NCBI RefSeq assembly: GCF_030815985.1 | Contig: NZ_JAUSXM010000001.1 | Location: 6,014,001-6,078,000 of the forward strand | Source of the DNA: Paenibacillus sp. W2I17 | GTDB lineage: Bacteria > Bacillota > Bacilli > Paenibacillales > Paenibacillaceae | DNA: 64,000 nt | Direction: 5' to 3' | Shown: piece after piece, positions 12,323 to 55,150 of the stretch | How positions within the stretch are numbered: position 1 is the stretch's first letter | How the letters are laid out: every line of letters begins with the position of its first letter | Program-made: the position numbers and the translations under genes | The notes under the pieces: generated by a model | The model's input: only the letters and a program-made list of their open reading frames with translations | What the model was told of the DNA's origin: nothing | The model's database searches: none

Positions 12323-13165
12323 ATGCAAGAAGTGAAGCTTGTTGTATCTTACGATGATTATGAGGACGGCATTCGTATGGAAAAATTAATTAAGGAACTG
12401 GCAGCTAAACCGGAGGCTAGCTCATTGGAAAGTCTGGTCATCGGAGATTGGGGGCAGGCTTATGAAAATTCGCCTGATGAGTTTATTGGTACGCTCGTCG
12501 AGTCTGCTCCAAGCTTTCCGTCATTGAAGAAACTGTTTATTGGAGATATGGGATTCGAAGAATGTGAAGTATCGTGGATTATCCAGACAAATCTCACACC
12601 ACTGTTAGGTGCTTTTCCAGAATTAAAATCATTCTCTGTAATGGGCAGTAGCGGCCTCAGTCTGGAACCACTACAGCATGCCAAGCTTGAAGAATTAATT
12701 ATTATTTGTGGTGGTCTCCCGAAAGAAGTCTTATCTTCAATCACCCATGCCAAGTTGCCTGAATTGCGTAAACTGGAACTGTACCTGGGTGTGGATAATT
12801 ATGGTTTCAATGGATCACTTGAAGATGTACTCCCGTTGTTAGAAAAAGGATTGTTTCCAAAGCTGGTTTACTTGGGTCTGAAAGACAGTGAAATTCAGGA
12901 TGAGATTGCCAAAGCAGCAGCTGAAGCACCTATTCTGGATCAACTTGAAGTACTGGATCTATCGCAAGGAACGTTGTCCGATGAAGGGGCTAAGGCGTTG
13001 CTTGCCAGTGACAAGATCAAGAAACTGAAACATCTTGATCTAAGTTACCATTACATGACCAATGAAATGATCATTCGCTGGAACCAATTGGGTATATCTG
13101 TAGATGTTAGTGACCAGCAACAGAGTGATGAGGATGACTGGCGCTATCCATCGTTAACGGAATAG
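12323..13165 (+). CDS. STM4015-family leucine-rich-repeat-like protein
   Basis: 280 residues from ATG 12323, placed by CGGAGGG eight bases upstream; a longer frame to 12134 lacks one. The chain is a series of irregular leucine-rich repeats such as FPSLKKLFIGDMGF, LPELRKLELYLGV, FPKLVYLGLKDSEI, LDQLEVLDLSQGTLSDEGAKAL and IKKLKHLDLSYHYMT. It ends with an acidic-aromatic tail, QSDEDDWRYPSLTE. This order and content match the STM4015 family, recalled from NCBI family names built on Salmonella tags; no function is known to me. It is the first gene of a five-gene operon and touches the next gene. It may act as scaffold, partner or substrate of the radical SAM enzymes (inference). Confidence 0.75.
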   Translation: MQEVKLVVSYDDYEDGIRMEKLIKELAAKPEASSLESLVIGDWGQAYENSPDEFIGTLVESAPSFPSLKKLFIGDMGFEECEVSWIIQTNLTPLLGAFPELKSFSVMGSSGLSLEPLQHAKLEELIIICGGLPKEVLSSITHAKLPELRKLELYLGVDNYGFNGSLEDVLPLLEKGLFPKLVYLGLKDSEIQDEIAKAAAEAPILDQLEVLDLSQGTLSDEGAKALLASDKIKKLKHLDLSYHYMTNEMIIRWNQLGISVDVSDQQQSDEDDWRYPSLTE

Positions 13166-13168
13166 TTG

Positions 13169-14437
13169 ATGTCAGGCGTAAAGGAAATGAATGAGAGTCT
13201 GCATCAACCAATAGATGTACCTGATCTAACGGAAGATCAGCCCTTTTTATTGATCGGAAACCCTGATAACCGACGAACACAAGGGCTGCAAGAGGCGAGG
13301 CATAGATTGGGTTTGAAACCTGCGGTTGTACTGCCATATGCTCAATTGCTCCAGAATTGGAGACACGGTCGAACCATCGCTGATACAGTAGATTCCAATC
13401 TGCCCGTACCCCTGATTCGTATTGATGCTCCTGGAGAGGATTGGGAAGTGGAACGTGAACTACTGTTCCTTGGAGCTATGAACGATTCATCAACATTAAC
13501 GGGTGGAATGGGTACAGAAGCATTTTCCGCAGAACAGGCACTTGCGCTGGAACAGGAGTGGGGAAGGATTTACGCTCCTGCCCAGTGGTTTCGTGGTTGG
13601 AAAGCATGTCTGGATCGAATCGGCCGTGAGTCTCGGGAAATATGGCCTGAAGTCCGATTCATGAATGATCCCGCTGAGATCCAATTGATGTTTGACAAAA
13701 GAACATGCCAGCAGCATCTATCTTCACATGGAGTTGATGTACCTCCTGCGCTTCAATCTTCGCAGCCAATCCGCAATTATACGGACTTGCGTAGCTCAAT
13801 GAAGGCTACCGAGATGCATCGTGTGTTTGTGAAGCTTGCGTACGGCTCCGGGGCTTCAGGAGTTGTTGCCTATCAAATCAATCCCCGAACGGGTGATGAA
13901 ATCGCTGTAACAACGATGGGGATGGAACAGAGACAGGGCAAGAGGATTTTCTTCAATGAAGGACGTCTACGCAAGTATACCCGCAGTGAAGAGATTGCTA
14001 CGCTGATGAACTGGTTATGTGCAGAAGGTGCACAGATTGAACGATGGATGCCCAAAGCCACGCTTGATCAACGGGCCTATGATATCCGCCAACTGGTTGC
14101 GGGTGGACAGGCAGGTCATGCGATTATGCGGCTGAGCCATACGCCAATTACCAATCTGCATCTGCGCAATGAACGTATGCTGCCTGCTGAAGCAGGGCTG
14201 GGTGAACAGCGGATGTCGCTGGTTCAGTCGGCAGCGCAAGCAGCCATGTCTGCATTTCCCAACTCGTGGTCAGCCGGGATTGATGTGATGCTTACTAGTG
14301 GTTCGAATCGGCGTGCCTATGTGCTGGATGTGAATCCATTTGGAGATCTGTTATACAGGGTTGAGCATCATGGCCTCGGAACCTATGAGTGGGAAATGGA
14401 ACTTTTACGAAAGGAGGAGCCTATTCAACATGCCTGA
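13169..14437 (+). CDS. STM4014-family ATP-grasp-like protein
   Basis: About 422 residues; start is ambiguous between TTG 13166, ATG 13169 and ATG 13187, all within seven codons. The C-terminal two thirds look like an ATP-grasp fold: RVFVKLAYGSGASGVVAYQ (~residues 220-238) is the glycine-rich nucleotide loop, QRAYDIRQLVAGGQAGHAIM provides the core strand, and AYVLDVNPFGDLLY near the C-terminus supplies the metal-binding Asp/Asn. ATP-grasp enzymes join a carboxylate to an amine or thiol through an acyl phosphate. The N-terminal third has no recognisable domain. It is second in the STM4015-4011 operon and overlaps the next start by eight bases. Substrate unknown. Confidence 0.75.
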   Translation: MSGVKEMNESLHQPIDVPDLTEDQPFLLIGNPDNRRTQGLQEARHRLGLKPAVVLPYAQLLQNWRHGRTIADTVDSNLPVPLIRIDAPGEDWEVERELLFLGAMNDSSTLTGGMGTEAFSAEQALALEQEWGRIYAPAQWFRGWKACLDRIGRESREIWPEVRFMNDPAEIQLMFDKRTCQQHLSSHGVDVPPALQSSQPIRNYTDLRSSMKATEMHRVFVKLAYGSGASGVVAYQINPRTGDEIAVTTMGMEQRQGKRIFFNEGRLRKYTRSEEIATLMNWLCAEGAQIERWMPKATLDQRAYDIRQLVAGGQAGHAIMRLSHTPITNLHLRNERMLPAEAGLGEQRMSLVQSAAQAAMSAFPNSWSAGIDVMLTSGSNRRAYVLDVNPFGDLLYRVEHHGLGTYEWEMELLRKEEPIQHA

Positions 14438-15215
14438 TATGAACACCATTGTGGGCTCCCATGATCTGTTAATGATTACGCTGGATACGTTACGCTATGA
14501 CGTAGCCAAGCTGGAAGAGGAGAATTGTCCTAATCTGTGTGGTTCGGGTCCGTGGGAGAAACGTCATACCCCAGGCAGTTTTACATATGCGGCGCACCAT
14601 GCTTTTTTTGGTGGTTTTATGCCGACTCCTGCCAATACAGATAAGGCATCTCATGTAAGGCTATTTCATTCCCGGAATACCGGACTCAAGACACATCCGC
14701 ACACCTGGCTGTTTGATACACCGGATATCGTATCTGGGTTCGCAGCTGAAGGTTACCGTACCATCTGTATTGGCGGTGTCATCTTTTTTACGAAAAAAAA
14801 CCCGCTTGCAAAAGTATTGCCTGGCTATTTCCAACAGAGCTACTGGCGAATGAACTTTGGGGTAACCAACCCCAAATCAACAGAGCATCAGGTACAGCAT
14901 GCATTGAAGTTGCTTGAACAGACATCGCCGGATGAAAAGATATTTATGTTTTTGAACGTGTCTGCCATTCATGGACCCAATGGTTACTTTGTAGAAGGAG
15001 CCAAGGAGGACTCGGTGGAGACTCAGCGGGCTGCACTTCGATATGTAGATGAGGCTCTTGGACCATTGTTCGAGGCGATGAGGAAACGCGCCCGGCCTGC
15101 GTATTGCCTGGCTTTTTCCGATCATGGTACAGCTTACGGTGAAGACGGGTATCAAGGACACCGGCTTGCGCATGATGTCGTCTGGACGGTGCCTTACCGT
15201 GAATTTTTAGTATAG
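14430..15215 (+). CDS. STM4013-family sulfatase/alkaline-phosphatase-fold hydrolase
   Basis: 261 residues from ATG 14430, which follows AAAGGAGG; a longer frame to 14340 overlaps the previous gene deeply. LLMITLDTLRYD (residues ~13-24) is the metal-binding start of the sulfatase/phosphonate-hydrolase fold, and AFSDHGTAYGED plus GHRLAHDVVWTVPYREF near the end supply the second metal site and closing strand. The usual C/S-x-P-x-R nucleophile motif is absent; the equivalent region reads GSFTYAAHHAFFGGF, so a Thr or Ser may serve instead. At 261 residues it is a minimal version of the fold. Third gene of the operon; substrate unknown. Confidence 0.75.
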   Translation: MPDMNTIVGSHDLLMITLDTLRYDVAKLEEENCPNLCGSGPWEKRHTPGSFTYAAHHAFFGGFMPTPANTDKASHVRLFHSRNTGLKTHPHTWLFDTPDIVSGFAAEGYRTICIGGVIFFTKKNPLAKVLPGYFQQSYWRMNFGVTNPKSTEHQVQHALKLLEQTSPDEKIFMFLNVSAIHGPNGYFVEGAKEDSVETQRAALRYVDEALGPLFEAMRKRARPAYCLAFSDHGTAYGEDGYQGHRLAHDVVWTVPYREFLV

Positions 15216-15262
15216 AATGTATTGATCTTATGAGGACAACAACCGGAGACAGGAGGGAACCG

Positions 15263-16651
15263 ATGGAGAAACATATACAACATACAACAACAGGCCATTC
15301 CACACAGTCCGGATCCAATATTGCTACAAGTCTCAGTGAAGTACTGGCATTCCCTTATCGTTCTTACTTATACTCGTACCCGCACAAGACCGCCTATCGG
15401 GAGCTTGACCCACCACTGCCGTTAGGGCCACTGTGGGAACGAGAGAATACCGATACGTATTTTTTATATATGCACATTCCCTTTTGCGCTGCTCGTTGCG
15501 GATTCTGTAATCTGTTCACACTGCCGGATCGACGGGATGATACGCATGAACGCTATGTAGATGCACTAGAACGTCAGGCGAAGCAGTGGGCACTCATTAC
15601 ATCTCGAAGGCCGTATTCGAGGTTCGCGATTGGTGGAGGAACGCCTACGTTATTAAATGAGGTTCAGTTGAATCGTCTGTTTGATATTGCTGAACATGTG
15701 ATGGGGCTGGACCCTGCGCAAGCATCGATATCGGTGGAAACGTCGCCGGATACCGTTACGGAAGCCAAGCTGGCCATCATGAAGGAACGAAGTGTGGATC
15801 GTATCAGTATGGGTATCCAGAGTTTTATCGAAGCTGAAGCATCTGCCATCTATCGTCCACAAAAACCGCAGGAGGTCGAACGAGCGCTTGAGAAGCTTAC
15901 TCGGTATGATTTCCCGTTGTTGAATCTGGATCTGATCTATGGTCTGCCAGGACAAACGGTGGAATCGTGGATCTATTCATTGGAAAGAGTTCTGGCCTAC
16001 GAACCAGGCGAAATCTTTATCTATCCCTTGTATACACGGGAAAATACAATCGTGAAGCCTGATGATATTCGCCGTCAGGGACCTGACATCCGGATGGAAT
16101 TGTATAAAGCTGCACGTGAGACTTTAAAAAGTAAAGGTTATGTGCAATATTCGATGCGCAGATTTGCCAAAGAACAGTCGTCCTCCAAAGTGCTTCTGCC
16201 TTATAGCTGTCAGGAGGAGGGCATGGTTGGTCTGGGATGTGGCGCACGCTCTTATACGAGTGAAGTACATTATGCTTCCAAGTATGGCGTGAGTTACAAG
16301 GCCACACAAAGCATCATTGCCGATTATGTGGCGACCGAGCGCTACGATGTGGCGGATTATGGCATCGTGTTAAGCCGTGAGGAACAGAGACGGCGCTTTA
16401 TTCTGAAAGCCTTGCTGCATCGGGAGGGATTGACGTTGTCTGACTACCAACAGCGCTTTGGTACCGATGTGATGTCCGACTATGTCTGGTTGGCTGAACT
16501 GTTGACAGAGGGCATGGCGGAGTTGGAGAGCGATGAGGGCAAGCAGGTGCTGCGTCTGACAGAAGAAGGACTGGGTTACTCCGATGCGATTGGAGATTGG
16601 CTTATATCTGCTGAAATTCGTGAACAGATGGAAGGGTTTGTTTTCTCATGA
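15263..16651 (+). CDS. STM4012-family radical SAM protein (HemN-like)
   Basis: 462 residues from ATG 15263, chosen for AGGAGGG upstream; the frame is open to 15230. The cluster motif is HIPFCAARCGFCNLF (~residues 70-84), followed by FAIGGGTPTLL and VETSPDTV, then SMGIQSF and DLIYGLPGQT, a full HemN/HemW-type radical SAM core. A HemN-C-like domain follows (ILKALLHREGLTL...). Automatic annotation often calls such proteins coproporphyrinogen oxidase, but the CxxxCxxCxC pattern of true HemN is not present and the setting is not a haem operon. Fourth gene of the STM4015-4011 operon, with a four-base overlap to the next. Confidence 0.8.
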   Translation: MEKHIQHTTTGHSTQSGSNIATSLSEVLAFPYRSYLYSYPHKTAYRELDPPLPLGPLWERENTDTYFLYMHIPFCAARCGFCNLFTLPDRRDDTHERYVDALERQAKQWALITSRRPYSRFAIGGGTPTLLNEVQLNRLFDIAEHVMGLDPAQASISVETSPDTVTEAKLAIMKERSVDRISMGIQSFIEAEASAIYRPQKPQEVERALEKLTRYDFPLLNLDLIYGLPGQTVESWIYSLERVLAYEPGEIFIYPLYTRENTIVKPDDIRRQGPDIRMELYKAARETLKSKGYVQYSMRRFAKEQSSSKVLLPYSCQEEGMVGLGCGARSYTSEVHYASKYGVSYKATQSIIADYVATERYDVADYGIVLSREEQRRRFILKALLHREGLTLSDYQQRFGTDVMSDYVWLAELLTEGMAELESDEGKQVLRLTEEGLGYSDAIGDWLISAEIREQMEGFVFS

Positions 16652-17508
16652 GAGCGACTTTGTATTATCGGGGGAAGTTGTCTTCCTGTAATTACGACTG
16701 TCCATACTGCCCTTTTAGCAAAACCGTGGATTCCAAAGAGACGTTGGAAGTGGATGAACAACAATTGCGGCAATTTGTAAATTGGGTCAGGGAGCAAGAG
16801 AGTGCCGGGCATCAATTTTCGATTTTCTTCAATCCCTACGGTGAAGCTTTGGTGCGCCGTTGGTACCGGGAAGCGATGGTTGAGCTGTCACATATGCCAC
16901 ATGTGGATAAAGTTGCAATTCAAACCAACCTGTCCGTCAAACTGGATTGGGCGAGGGAGCTGGATGCGAATAAAGCAGCCTTTTGGGCGACGTATCATCC
17001 TCGTGAGACAAAAGAGGCTTCTTTTGTAAAACAATGTCTGACCTTGCGTCAGATGGGACTTGCTTTTAGTGTCGGTACTGTCGGACTTCGTAGTGCTTTC
17101 CCCGCAATTGAGTCCATGAGACAGGCTTTGCCGGATGATGTGTATATGTGGGTAAATGCCTTCAAAGATCGGCCCAAGTATTACACACCGGAAGAGATTC
17201 AGTTTTTACGTGGGCTTGATCCGCTTTTTGAAGGTAATCTGCAGGATTATGAGAGCTTGGGCAAACGATGTGCTGCCGGTTCGGAAGTGTTTTATGTACA
17301 GGGGTCCGGGCATGTGAAGAGGTGTTACAAGGATCGTCGAATCATTGGACATCTATATCGCGATGGTTTGCAGGCTTTGTCTGAGGATCGGCCTTGTCGC
17401 ATGAAAAAATGTGGCTGTTACATCGGTTATATCCATATGGAGGATTCCCCGTTCAGGGAAACGTTTGGCAGCGGGTTGCTTGAACGAAATCCGGCCATGA
17501 TTCGTTGA
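16648..17508 (+). CDS. STM4011-family radical SAM protein with C-terminal cysteine cluster
   Basis: 286 residues; ATG overlaps the previous stop (ATGA). The radical SAM motif is SSCNYDCPYCPF (residues ~12-23), unusually close to the N-terminus. The C-terminal region has KRC followed by DRPCRMKKCGCYIGY (~residues 230-265), four or more cysteines in a SPASM/twitch-like pattern for an auxiliary iron-sulfur cluster. Auxiliary clusters of this type are common in enzymes that modify peptides, though other substrates occur. It differs clearly from the HemN-like enzyme next to it, so the operon encodes two separate radical steps. Last gene of the operon; terminator-like hairpins follow. Confidence 0.8.
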   Translation: MRATLYYRGKLSSCNYDCPYCPFSKTVDSKETLEVDEQQLRQFVNWVREQESAGHQFSIFFNPYGEALVRRWYREAMVELSHMPHVDKVAIQTNLSVKLDWARELDANKAAFWATYHPRETKEASFVKQCLTLRQMGLAFSVGTVGLRSAFPAIESMRQALPDDVYMWVNAFKDRPKYYTPEEIQFLRGLDPLFEGNLQDYESLGKRCAAGSEVFYVQGSGHVKRCYKDRRIIGHLYRDGLQALSEDRPCRMKKCGCYIGYIHMEDSPFRETFGSGLLERNPAMIR

Positions 17509-54748: not shown

Positions 54749-54867
54749 GCATGATTCGTCCTAAACCTGCATTCCAGCGCTCTTTATCCGCTGTTGTCAG
54801 GTTGACTATCGCGCACGAGCAAGGTATGATGTGTGTAGGTTTTTTGAAGAACAACGTGGAACGGGAG

Positions 54868-55150
54868 TAGTAGACAGTATGACCTTTCAGAGAGTGGAAT
54901 TGCAGCGCTGTGAGATTCCGCAGGAACCAACTGATCGAAGTCGCCCGGGAGTTGCCTGTTTGAATACAAGGGATGAATGAGATTTATCGTCATTTATTTC
55001 TGAGGTAGGATGGGCCGGTAGCAGCCGTTATCTGCTTGAAGTGTCACGTCATGTACAGAGGGTGAAGTCTATCTTGCTGTAGGCGTGAAACAAAGGTGGT
55101 ACCGCGAAAGCTAACCTTTCGTCCTTTGATGGATGAAAGGTTTTTTTGTT
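54868..55150 (+). promoter_or_regulatory. T-box riboswitch leader of valS
   Basis: The T-box bulge sequence AAAGGTGGTACCGCG is at 55092-55106. Upstream, AGAGAGTGGAATTG (54889 onwards) is the stem I AG-bulge region. The terminator AACCTTTCGTCC/GGATGAAAGGTT with T run is at 55113-55148. Uncharged tRNA-Val is expected to pair and favour read-through into valS. A GTC in GAAGTCGCC (~54938) is a candidate specifier codon; I could not fold the leader to confirm it. Confidence 0.9.

What the first reader, a model, noticed from the sequence alone, without database searches (positions are those of the whole stretch)
12323..17508. Five-gene operon with two radical SAM proteins, ATP-grasp, sulfatase-fold hydrolase and LRR-like protein (STM4015-STM4011 type)
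Seen: five genes touching or overlapping by 4-8 bases (one 47-base gap), each with its own good ribosome binding site. They encode an LRR-like protein, an ATP-grasp-like protein, a minimal sulfatase-fold hydrolase, a HemN-like radical SAM and a second radical SAM with a C-terminal Cys cluster. Known: the same set exists in Salmonella as neighbouring tags STM4011-STM4015, and the families are named only by tag. Inference: this is a transferable biosynthetic or modification cassette (two radical steps, one ligation, one hydrolysis) placed between rdgB and ysoA, where core Bacillus order is broken. There is no transporter, obvious precursor peptide or regulator next to it, so a chemical modification of a cellular component or of the LRR protein is possible.
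Basis: partly seen in the sequence, partly recalled or inferred. Interest (0 to 1): 0.88.

Follow-up and report, generated by a model that had tools for sequence, protein, structure and literature searches.

The report
Repeat-protein carrier with two radical enzymes
A five-gene cassette shared by very distant bacteria may build something on the last amino acid of a leucine-rich-repeat protein: that residue is almost always glutamate, and the ligase beside it resembles enzymes that attach amino acids to exactly such an end.

Summary
The five genes (12323-17508) pass the NCBIfam cut-offs for STM4015, STM4014, STM4013, STM4012 and STM4011. STM4015, STM4014 and STM4011 occur in the identical 83 of 198 Paenibacillales genomes sampled, and the order recurs on plasmids of four phyla. 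No paper found in an open library describes a function.

New here: 353 of 360 STM4015 homologues end exactly in glutamate; the seven others look truncated or fused. The other four proteins have no such fixed end. Independently, STM4014's closest solved relatives by sequence, though remote, are LysX and RimK, ligases that act on a C-terminal Glu; they also head the fold list, nearly tied with other ATP-grasp enzymes.

Best reading: STM4015 is a leucine-rich-repeat carrier or substrate, STM4014 loads its C-terminal Glu, and two radical SAM enzymes modify the loaded end. STM4013 looks like a Thr-nucleophile phosphatase/phosphodiesterase, not a sulfatase.

The link is inferred. Donor, product and release are unknown. 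A predicted ordered tail and the lack of a peptidase count against it.

The parts
12323..13165 (+). STM4015-family leucine-rich-repeat protein, 280 aa: proposed carrier/substrate
13127..13162 (+). C-terminal tail DEDDWRYPSLTE ending in Glu280: proposed attachment site
   Evidence: 353 of 360 homologues end in Glu; these 353 have 161 distinct last-12 sequences; Glu280 is one of 18 invariant columns of a 21-sequence alignment
13169..14437 (+). STM4014-family ATP-grasp ligase (start uncertain: 13166, 13169 or 13187)
   Evidence: NF038074, 421 bits vs 175; closest solved relatives LysX and RimK; model pLDDT 89.6 with ArgX/LysX/RimK heading the fold list
14150..14158 (+). Thr-Asn-Leu, invariant in a 12-sequence STM4014 alignment, at the place of LysX TNTARGG and RimK SNLHRGG
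   Evidence: alignments
14430..15215 (+). STM4013-family hydrolase, alkaline-phosphatase superfamily
   Evidence: NF038075, 400 bits vs 250; PF00884 39 bits vs 25
14583..14585 (+). codon of Thr52, invariant in 11 sequences, at the nucleophile position; no sulfatase C/S-x-P-x-R motif
   Evidence: alignment A2 and alignment to 7n1s/2gsn
15263..16651 (+). STM4012-family HemN-like radical SAM enzyme
   Evidence: NF006067, 595 bits vs 380; HemN 1olt E 8e-56, NocN 9p2u E 8e-34
15485..15508 (+). CxxxCxxC cluster motif of STM4012 (Cys75, Cys79, Cys82), invariant in 11 sequences
   Evidence: alignment A3
16648..17508 (+). STM4011-family radical SAM enzyme with a twitch/SPASM-like C-terminus
   Evidence: NF038073, 403 bits vs 200; C-terminal part matches SkfB 6efn, E 0.0018
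17269..17418 (+). second Cys set of STM4011 (Cys208, 226, 250, 255, 257), invariant in 10 sequences
   Evidence: alignment A4

Best explanation
The cassette makes a modification, or a small amino-acid-derived product, on the C-terminal glutamate of the LRR protein STM4015. (1) Inferred: the ATP-grasp ligase STM4014 activates a carboxylate of the terminal Glu and joins an amine, probably an amino acid, to it, as LysX does on LysW and RimK on ribosomal protein S6. (2) Inferred: the two radical SAM enzymes, STM4011 (with an extra Cys-rich domain) and STM4012 (HemN-like, so perhaps using a second SAM), act on the tethered unit or the aromatic residues beside it. (3) Inferred: STM4013, and in some lineages a HAD phosphatase, removes a phosphate or phosphodiester. 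(4) Unknown: whether the product is cut off by an unlinked peptidase or stays on the LRR protein as the active form. Shown: gene content and order, co-occurrence, the near-invariant C-terminal Glu, the ligase's remote relationship, and the conserved active-site residues.
Against: No direct evidence that STM4014 touches STM4015. The ligase match is remote (E 6.5e-6 for the whole sequence; single stretches alone only E 0.07 to 9.2). PurK, glutathione synthetase, inositol-pyrophosphate kinases and D-Ala ligases follow within 1-3 Z units, and Foldseek itself ranks the graspetide ligase PsnB first. The Arg of LysX/RimK 'RGG' is Leu in STM4014. The STM4015 model shows the tail ordered (last block pLDDT 87) and 2ra8 aligns to the last model residue, so the tail is not a loose arm in those states. 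No peptidase lies in the cassette. Calothrix sp. PCC 7716 carries a lone STM4015-like gene on a plasmid (259 bits, under the 275 cut-off) that keeps the terminal Glu; its chromosome was not checked.
Confidence: 0.5

Rival explanations
1. RiPP-like maturation: the tail residues themselves (aromatic residue at -5 or -7, terminal Glu) are cross-linked or rearranged by the radical SAM enzymes, the LRR domain serves as a very large leader, and STM4014 makes a graspetide-like bond.
For: An aromatic residue lies at -7 to -5 in 352 of 353 tails. STM4011 resembles the C-terminal part of SkfB, a peptide-modifying radical SAM enzyme. Foldseek's first hit for STM4014 is the graspetide ligase PsnB.
Against: The aromatic position is not fixed: -5 and -7 in 210 of 353, -5 alone in 76, -7 alone in 50, other patterns in 17, whereas only Glu is invariant. 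No peptidase or transporter is part of the five-gene set.
Confidence: 0.2
2. The LRR protein is a non-substrate scaffold or recruiter. The enzymes make a free small molecule, and the C-terminal Glu is a docking motif for one of them.
For: LRR folds bind proteins (recalled); the STM4015 model and 2ra8 have an ordered tail. STM4013 and HAD look like enzymes for phosphate esters, which free metabolites often carry (inference).
Against: Exact conservation of the very last residue, with the residue before it always small, fits the LysW tail (EDWGE) better than a docking motif; the ligase relationship would then be coincidence.
Confidence: 0.2
3. STM4014 polyglutamylates STM4015 as RimK does S6, as a regulatory mark, and the radical SAM enzymes serve another substrate.
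For: STM4014 shares Asn-Leu-His with RimK (SNLHRGG) rather than Asn-Thr with LysX.
Against: STM4015, STM4014 and STM4011 co-occur as one unit, and all five are kept even when dispersed in G425, which argues for one pathway.
Confidence: 0.07

Closest known systems
LysW/LysX amino-group carrier system (and the secondary-metabolite AmCPs, e.g. Vzb22)
   Same: A carrier protein with an acidic tail and a conserved C-terminal Glu, and an ATP-grasp ligase; STM4014's best sequence matches include LysX, and ArgX/LysX top the fold list.
   Different: The proposed carrier is a 280-aa LRR protein, not a 54-residue zinc protein; the tail is not EDWGE; the ligase motif is TNL, not TNT; the partner enzymes are radical SAM enzymes plus a phosphatase-type hydrolase, not LysZ, LysY, LysJ and LysK.
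RimK, ribosomal protein S6-L-glutamate ligase
   Same: An ATP-grasp ligase acting on a protein C-terminus; shared Asn-Leu-His.
   Different: No radical SAM partners known to me; the Arg after NLH is Leu in STM4014; STM4014 is longer (about 415 against about 300 residues).
Pearlins (3-thiaglutamate, 3-thiahomoleucine)
   Same: The logic: an amino acid is added to a carrier C-terminus, then modified in place, including by a radical SAM enzyme (PMC9303977, passages).
   Different: Loading there is by a tRNA-dependent PEARL, the carrier is a peptide and a protease releases the product; none of these is in the five-gene set.
HemN and HemN-like radical SAM methyltransferases (NocN)
   Same: STM4012 aligns over most of HemN, with the CxxxCxxC motif and a HemN_C domain.
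   Different: Far below the HemN, HemZ and ChuW/HutW cut-offs and below that of HemW.

Membership tests
STM4011-STM4015 cassette (NCBIfam) | each protein over its curated cut-off | tested here: met
   five of five
STM4011-STM4015 cassette (NCBIfam) | conserved co-occurrence | tested here: met
   identical 83 of 198 genomes for STM4015, STM4014 and STM4011; STM4012 and STM4013 not scanned in that set
LysW / amino-group carrier protein | C-terminal Glu at the exact end | tested here: met
   353 of 360
LysW / amino-group carrier protein | small zinc-binding domain with Cys and an EDWGE tail | tested here: not met
   LRR fold; tails; defining motif from PMC10433800 (passages)
LysX / RimK ligase | match to a curated LysX or RimK model | tested here: not met
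   only NF038074 matched at E<=0.01
LysX / RimK ligase | ATP-grasp fold nearest to LysX/RimK | tested here: inconclusive
   top eight rows, but other enzymes within 1-3 Z; Foldseek puts PsnB first
LysX / RimK ligase | ligation to a protein C-terminal Glu | not testable with these tools
   needs biochemistry
Sulfatase | C/S-x-P-x-R formylglycine motif | tested here: not met
   invariant Thr52, followed by Tyr-Ala-Ala-His in the window protein; motif recalled
HemN / HemW | curated cut-off | tested here: not met
   145 vs 325 and 161 vs 205 bits
SPASM/twitch radical SAM | C-terminal auxiliary-cluster Cys set | tested here: inconclusive
   five invariant Cys; weak match to SkfB; no Pfam SPASM hit for the window protein, a sub-threshold one for the Bacteroides relative
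Anti-phage defence | PADLOC model match | tested here: inconclusive
   four of five proteins have none; STM4012 hits one candidate model (PDC-M51A, E 1.8e-11) over a 111-residue stretch of the protein

The most novel reading that the evidence does not exclude
A biosynthetic logic I did not find described: a leucine-rich-repeat solenoid acts as a covalent carrier, loaded by an ATP-grasp ligase at a C-terminal glutamate, on which two radical SAM enzymes build an amino-acid-derived product. The five-gene cassette was seen in four phyla, with a broken copy in Bacteroidota and a lone LRR gene in Cyanobacteriota.
Probability: 0.35. Interest if true: 0.87.

Novelty: new variant of a known kind. Interest (0 to 1): 0.73.

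Why it matters
The families are named only by locus tag although they occur in Salmonella, Streptomyces, Deinococcus and 83 of 198 sampled Paenibacillales. The conserved C-terminal Glu beside a LysX/RimK-like ligase turns 'function unknown' into one cheap test: co-express two proteins and weigh the LRR protein. If it gains mass, a new class of carrier and probably a new radical-SAM-made metabolite or protein modification follow.

Tried and rejected
Rejected: sulfatase function (Thr at the nucleophile position). Rejected: coproporphyrinogen oxidation or heme chaperoning by STM4012 (cut-offs not met). Not supported: anti-phage defence (one partial PADLOC hit). Not pursued: the 64-aa ORF upstream of the operon as a precursor peptide; relatives among ORFs of 60 aa or more turned up in only 5 of 80 loci, and shorter ORFs were not looked at. 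Not informative: promoter-like sites are no more frequent than in shuffles (6 against a mean of 9.4), terminator-like sites about as frequent (7 against 5.1). Lone STM4015 was a worry: G425 proved to hold the other four genes elsewhere; Calothrix stays open. The cassette has no fixed chromosomal site: an rdgB relative lies in 31 of the 80 loci and the chemotaxis receptor in 18 (receptor counts may include paralogues). Literature: the locus tags occur in two papers, as table entries: a sigma-54 binding site listed under STM4013.S (PMC3844500) and STM4015 in a list of selected genes (PMC2784778); passages only. A megablast of the Salmonella cassette against complete E. coli genomes found nothing, although protein hits labelled Escherichia at about 70% identity exist, so absence is not shown. 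A search for papers on the 2ra8 structure found none. Rank order in the fold lists is partly tied, so the fold alone does not select LysX/RimK.

Full report
WHAT IS THERE. The window holds five co-directional genes, 12323-17508. All five pass the curated NCBIfam cut-offs for STM4015, STM4014, STM4013, STM4012 and STM4011. The host is a Paenibacillus: the nearest relatives include P. xylanexedens and P. amylolyticus, and the window lies in a 7.0-Mb single-contig assembly.

DISTRIBUTION. Of 107 related stretches in GTDB genomes, the best 80 were kept, all Paenibacillaceae by title. The five genes lie in order in 79 of these; the 80th (L003) has all five with STM4015 and STM4013 split into two ORF pieces. 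In a sample of 198 genomes of the window's order, STM4011, STM4015 and STM4014 exceed their cut-offs in 83 genomes each, and the three sets are identical. STM4012 and STM4013 were not scanned in that set. In 398 genomes drawn from the phylum, STM4015 and STM4014 each exceed the cut-off in the same eight (compared by eye). Genome G425 has the five genes on three contigs: STM4015, STM4014, and STM4013-STM4012-STM4011, so they stay together without being neighbours. In the plasmid collection STM4015 is in 14 records and STM4011 in 13. I fetched 13 of the 14 (the second Salmonella record was left out). Ten have all five in order, by annotation or ORF scan: Paenibacillus, three Deinococcus, Salmonella, Methylobacterium, two Streptomyces, one Embleya, Nonomuraea. 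The Bacteroides finegoldii copy has lost the middle. The other Embleya record (L114) shows no STM4014 ORF in my scan. The Calothrix plasmid has an STM4015-like gene alone, under the family cut-off. Trees of STM4011-STM4014 from 11 cassettes separate Salmonella plus genome G345 from the Paenibacillus/Deinococcus/Streptomyces/Methylobacterium rows in all four, with long branches flagged by the tool. G345 is of the window's phylum, so that phylum falls in both groups, as horizontal transfer would give.

THE C-TERMINAL GLUTAMATE. Of 360 STM4015 homologues from three searches (the best 120 of 1043, 235 and 2139 hits), 353 end exactly in Glu. Six of the seven others are 177-237 aa long and one (319 aa) ends in STM4014 sequence, so all seven look truncated, frame-broken or fused. 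The 353 have 161 distinct last-12 sequences, in which the other eleven positions vary. The residue before Glu is T, S, G or A in 353 of 353, and an aromatic residue lies at -7 to -5 in 352. The aromatic position shifts. Controls: none of the other four cassette proteins has a fixed last residue, though STM4013 ends in Leu in 70 of 98, and 62 of 1114 other long ORFs from the same loci end in Glu (mechanical ORFs, so a rough figure). In the fetched loci the hits to my STM4015 profile that do not end in Glu were the frame-broken L003 piece and two weak LRR hits of another kind. Second copies in Deinococcus, Streptomyces, Embleya and Nonomuraea that I examined keep the tail.

THE OTHER ENZYMES. 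STM4012 aligns to HemN (E 8e-56) and NocN (E 8e-34) but is below HemN and HemW cut-offs; HemN-like enzymes in natural-product pathways can use a SAM methylene radical (PMC9570651, passages). STM4011 has the CxxxCxxC motif and five further invariant Cys; its C-terminal part matches SkfB weakly (E 0.0018). STM4013 has an invariant Thr52 aligned with a Thr of nucleotide pyrophosphatase/phosphodiesterases, which I recall as the nucleophile; the Cys/Ser motif of sulfatases is absent. A HAD phosphatase gene follows STM4011 in Salmonella, and a HAD domain is fused to STM4011 in Bacteroides and genome G345. In G425 the STM4011 open frame is also long, 519 aa, its extra part not scanned. These suggest a phosphorylated intermediate (inference).

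READING. Two independent observations, a C-terminal Glu kept on the LRR protein and a neighbouring ligase closest to enzymes that use a C-terminal Glu, fit one model: STM4015 is a covalent carrier or substrate. What is loaded, what the radical enzymes do, and whether the product leaves are unknown. Against: the tail is ordered in the model (pLDDT 87 in the last block) and 2ra8 aligns to its last residue; no peptidase is in the set; the ligase relationship is remote.

LITERATURE. Full-text searches of the open library for the locus tags, family names and combined terms turned up no description of function in what I saw (listings, and passages of the papers named here); two papers list a tag in tables (passages). 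Subscription papers were not searched. In the CDC123/ATP-grasp survey (PMC4431377) the terms 'leucine-rich' and 'radical' do not occur, and in the graspetide survey (PMC8939145) 'LRR', 'leucine' and 'sulfatase' do not occur.

Noticed in passing
L105, L106, L110, L111, L112, L113 beside the cassette: A protein annotated DUF6745 (checked by Pfam for L105 only) and a ~100-aa protein with invariant GE-x-TGH-x-H and HxEH residues (metal-binding look) accompany the cassette in three Deinococcus, one Methylobacterium and two Streptomyces plasmids. Not seen beside L104 (Paenibacillus) or L107 (Salmonella); the other Paenibacillus loci were not scanned for it.
   Followed up: partly
L108 9832-11775: The Bacteroides finegoldii plasmid copy lacks the part from within STM4013 to near the end of STM4012; STM4011 there is fused to a HAD phosphatase domain.
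   Followed up: partly
L128 and L129 (genome G160): The cassette is split within STM4013 into two places 1.4 Mb apart, with an ORF that looks like a transposase by eye (not searched) next to one broken end.
   Followed up: partly
P0139: A Salmonella Typhi protein matches STM4015 over 70% of it and ends in STM4014 sequence, so this record looks like a fused or decayed copy.
   Followed up: no
L101 8544-9650; L108 7758-8831: STM4015 with an N-terminal WGR domain (Pfam for L101; L108 by resemblance in the alignment). The only solved family structure, 2ra8, has about 77 residues before the LRR part and is probably of this kind.
   Followed up: partly
window 54848-55129 +: T-box leader (RF00230), 109.9 bits.
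   Followed up: no
L127 6585-8063: In G425 the STM4014 gene, away from the other four, follows a DUF6138 protein gene.
   Followed up: no
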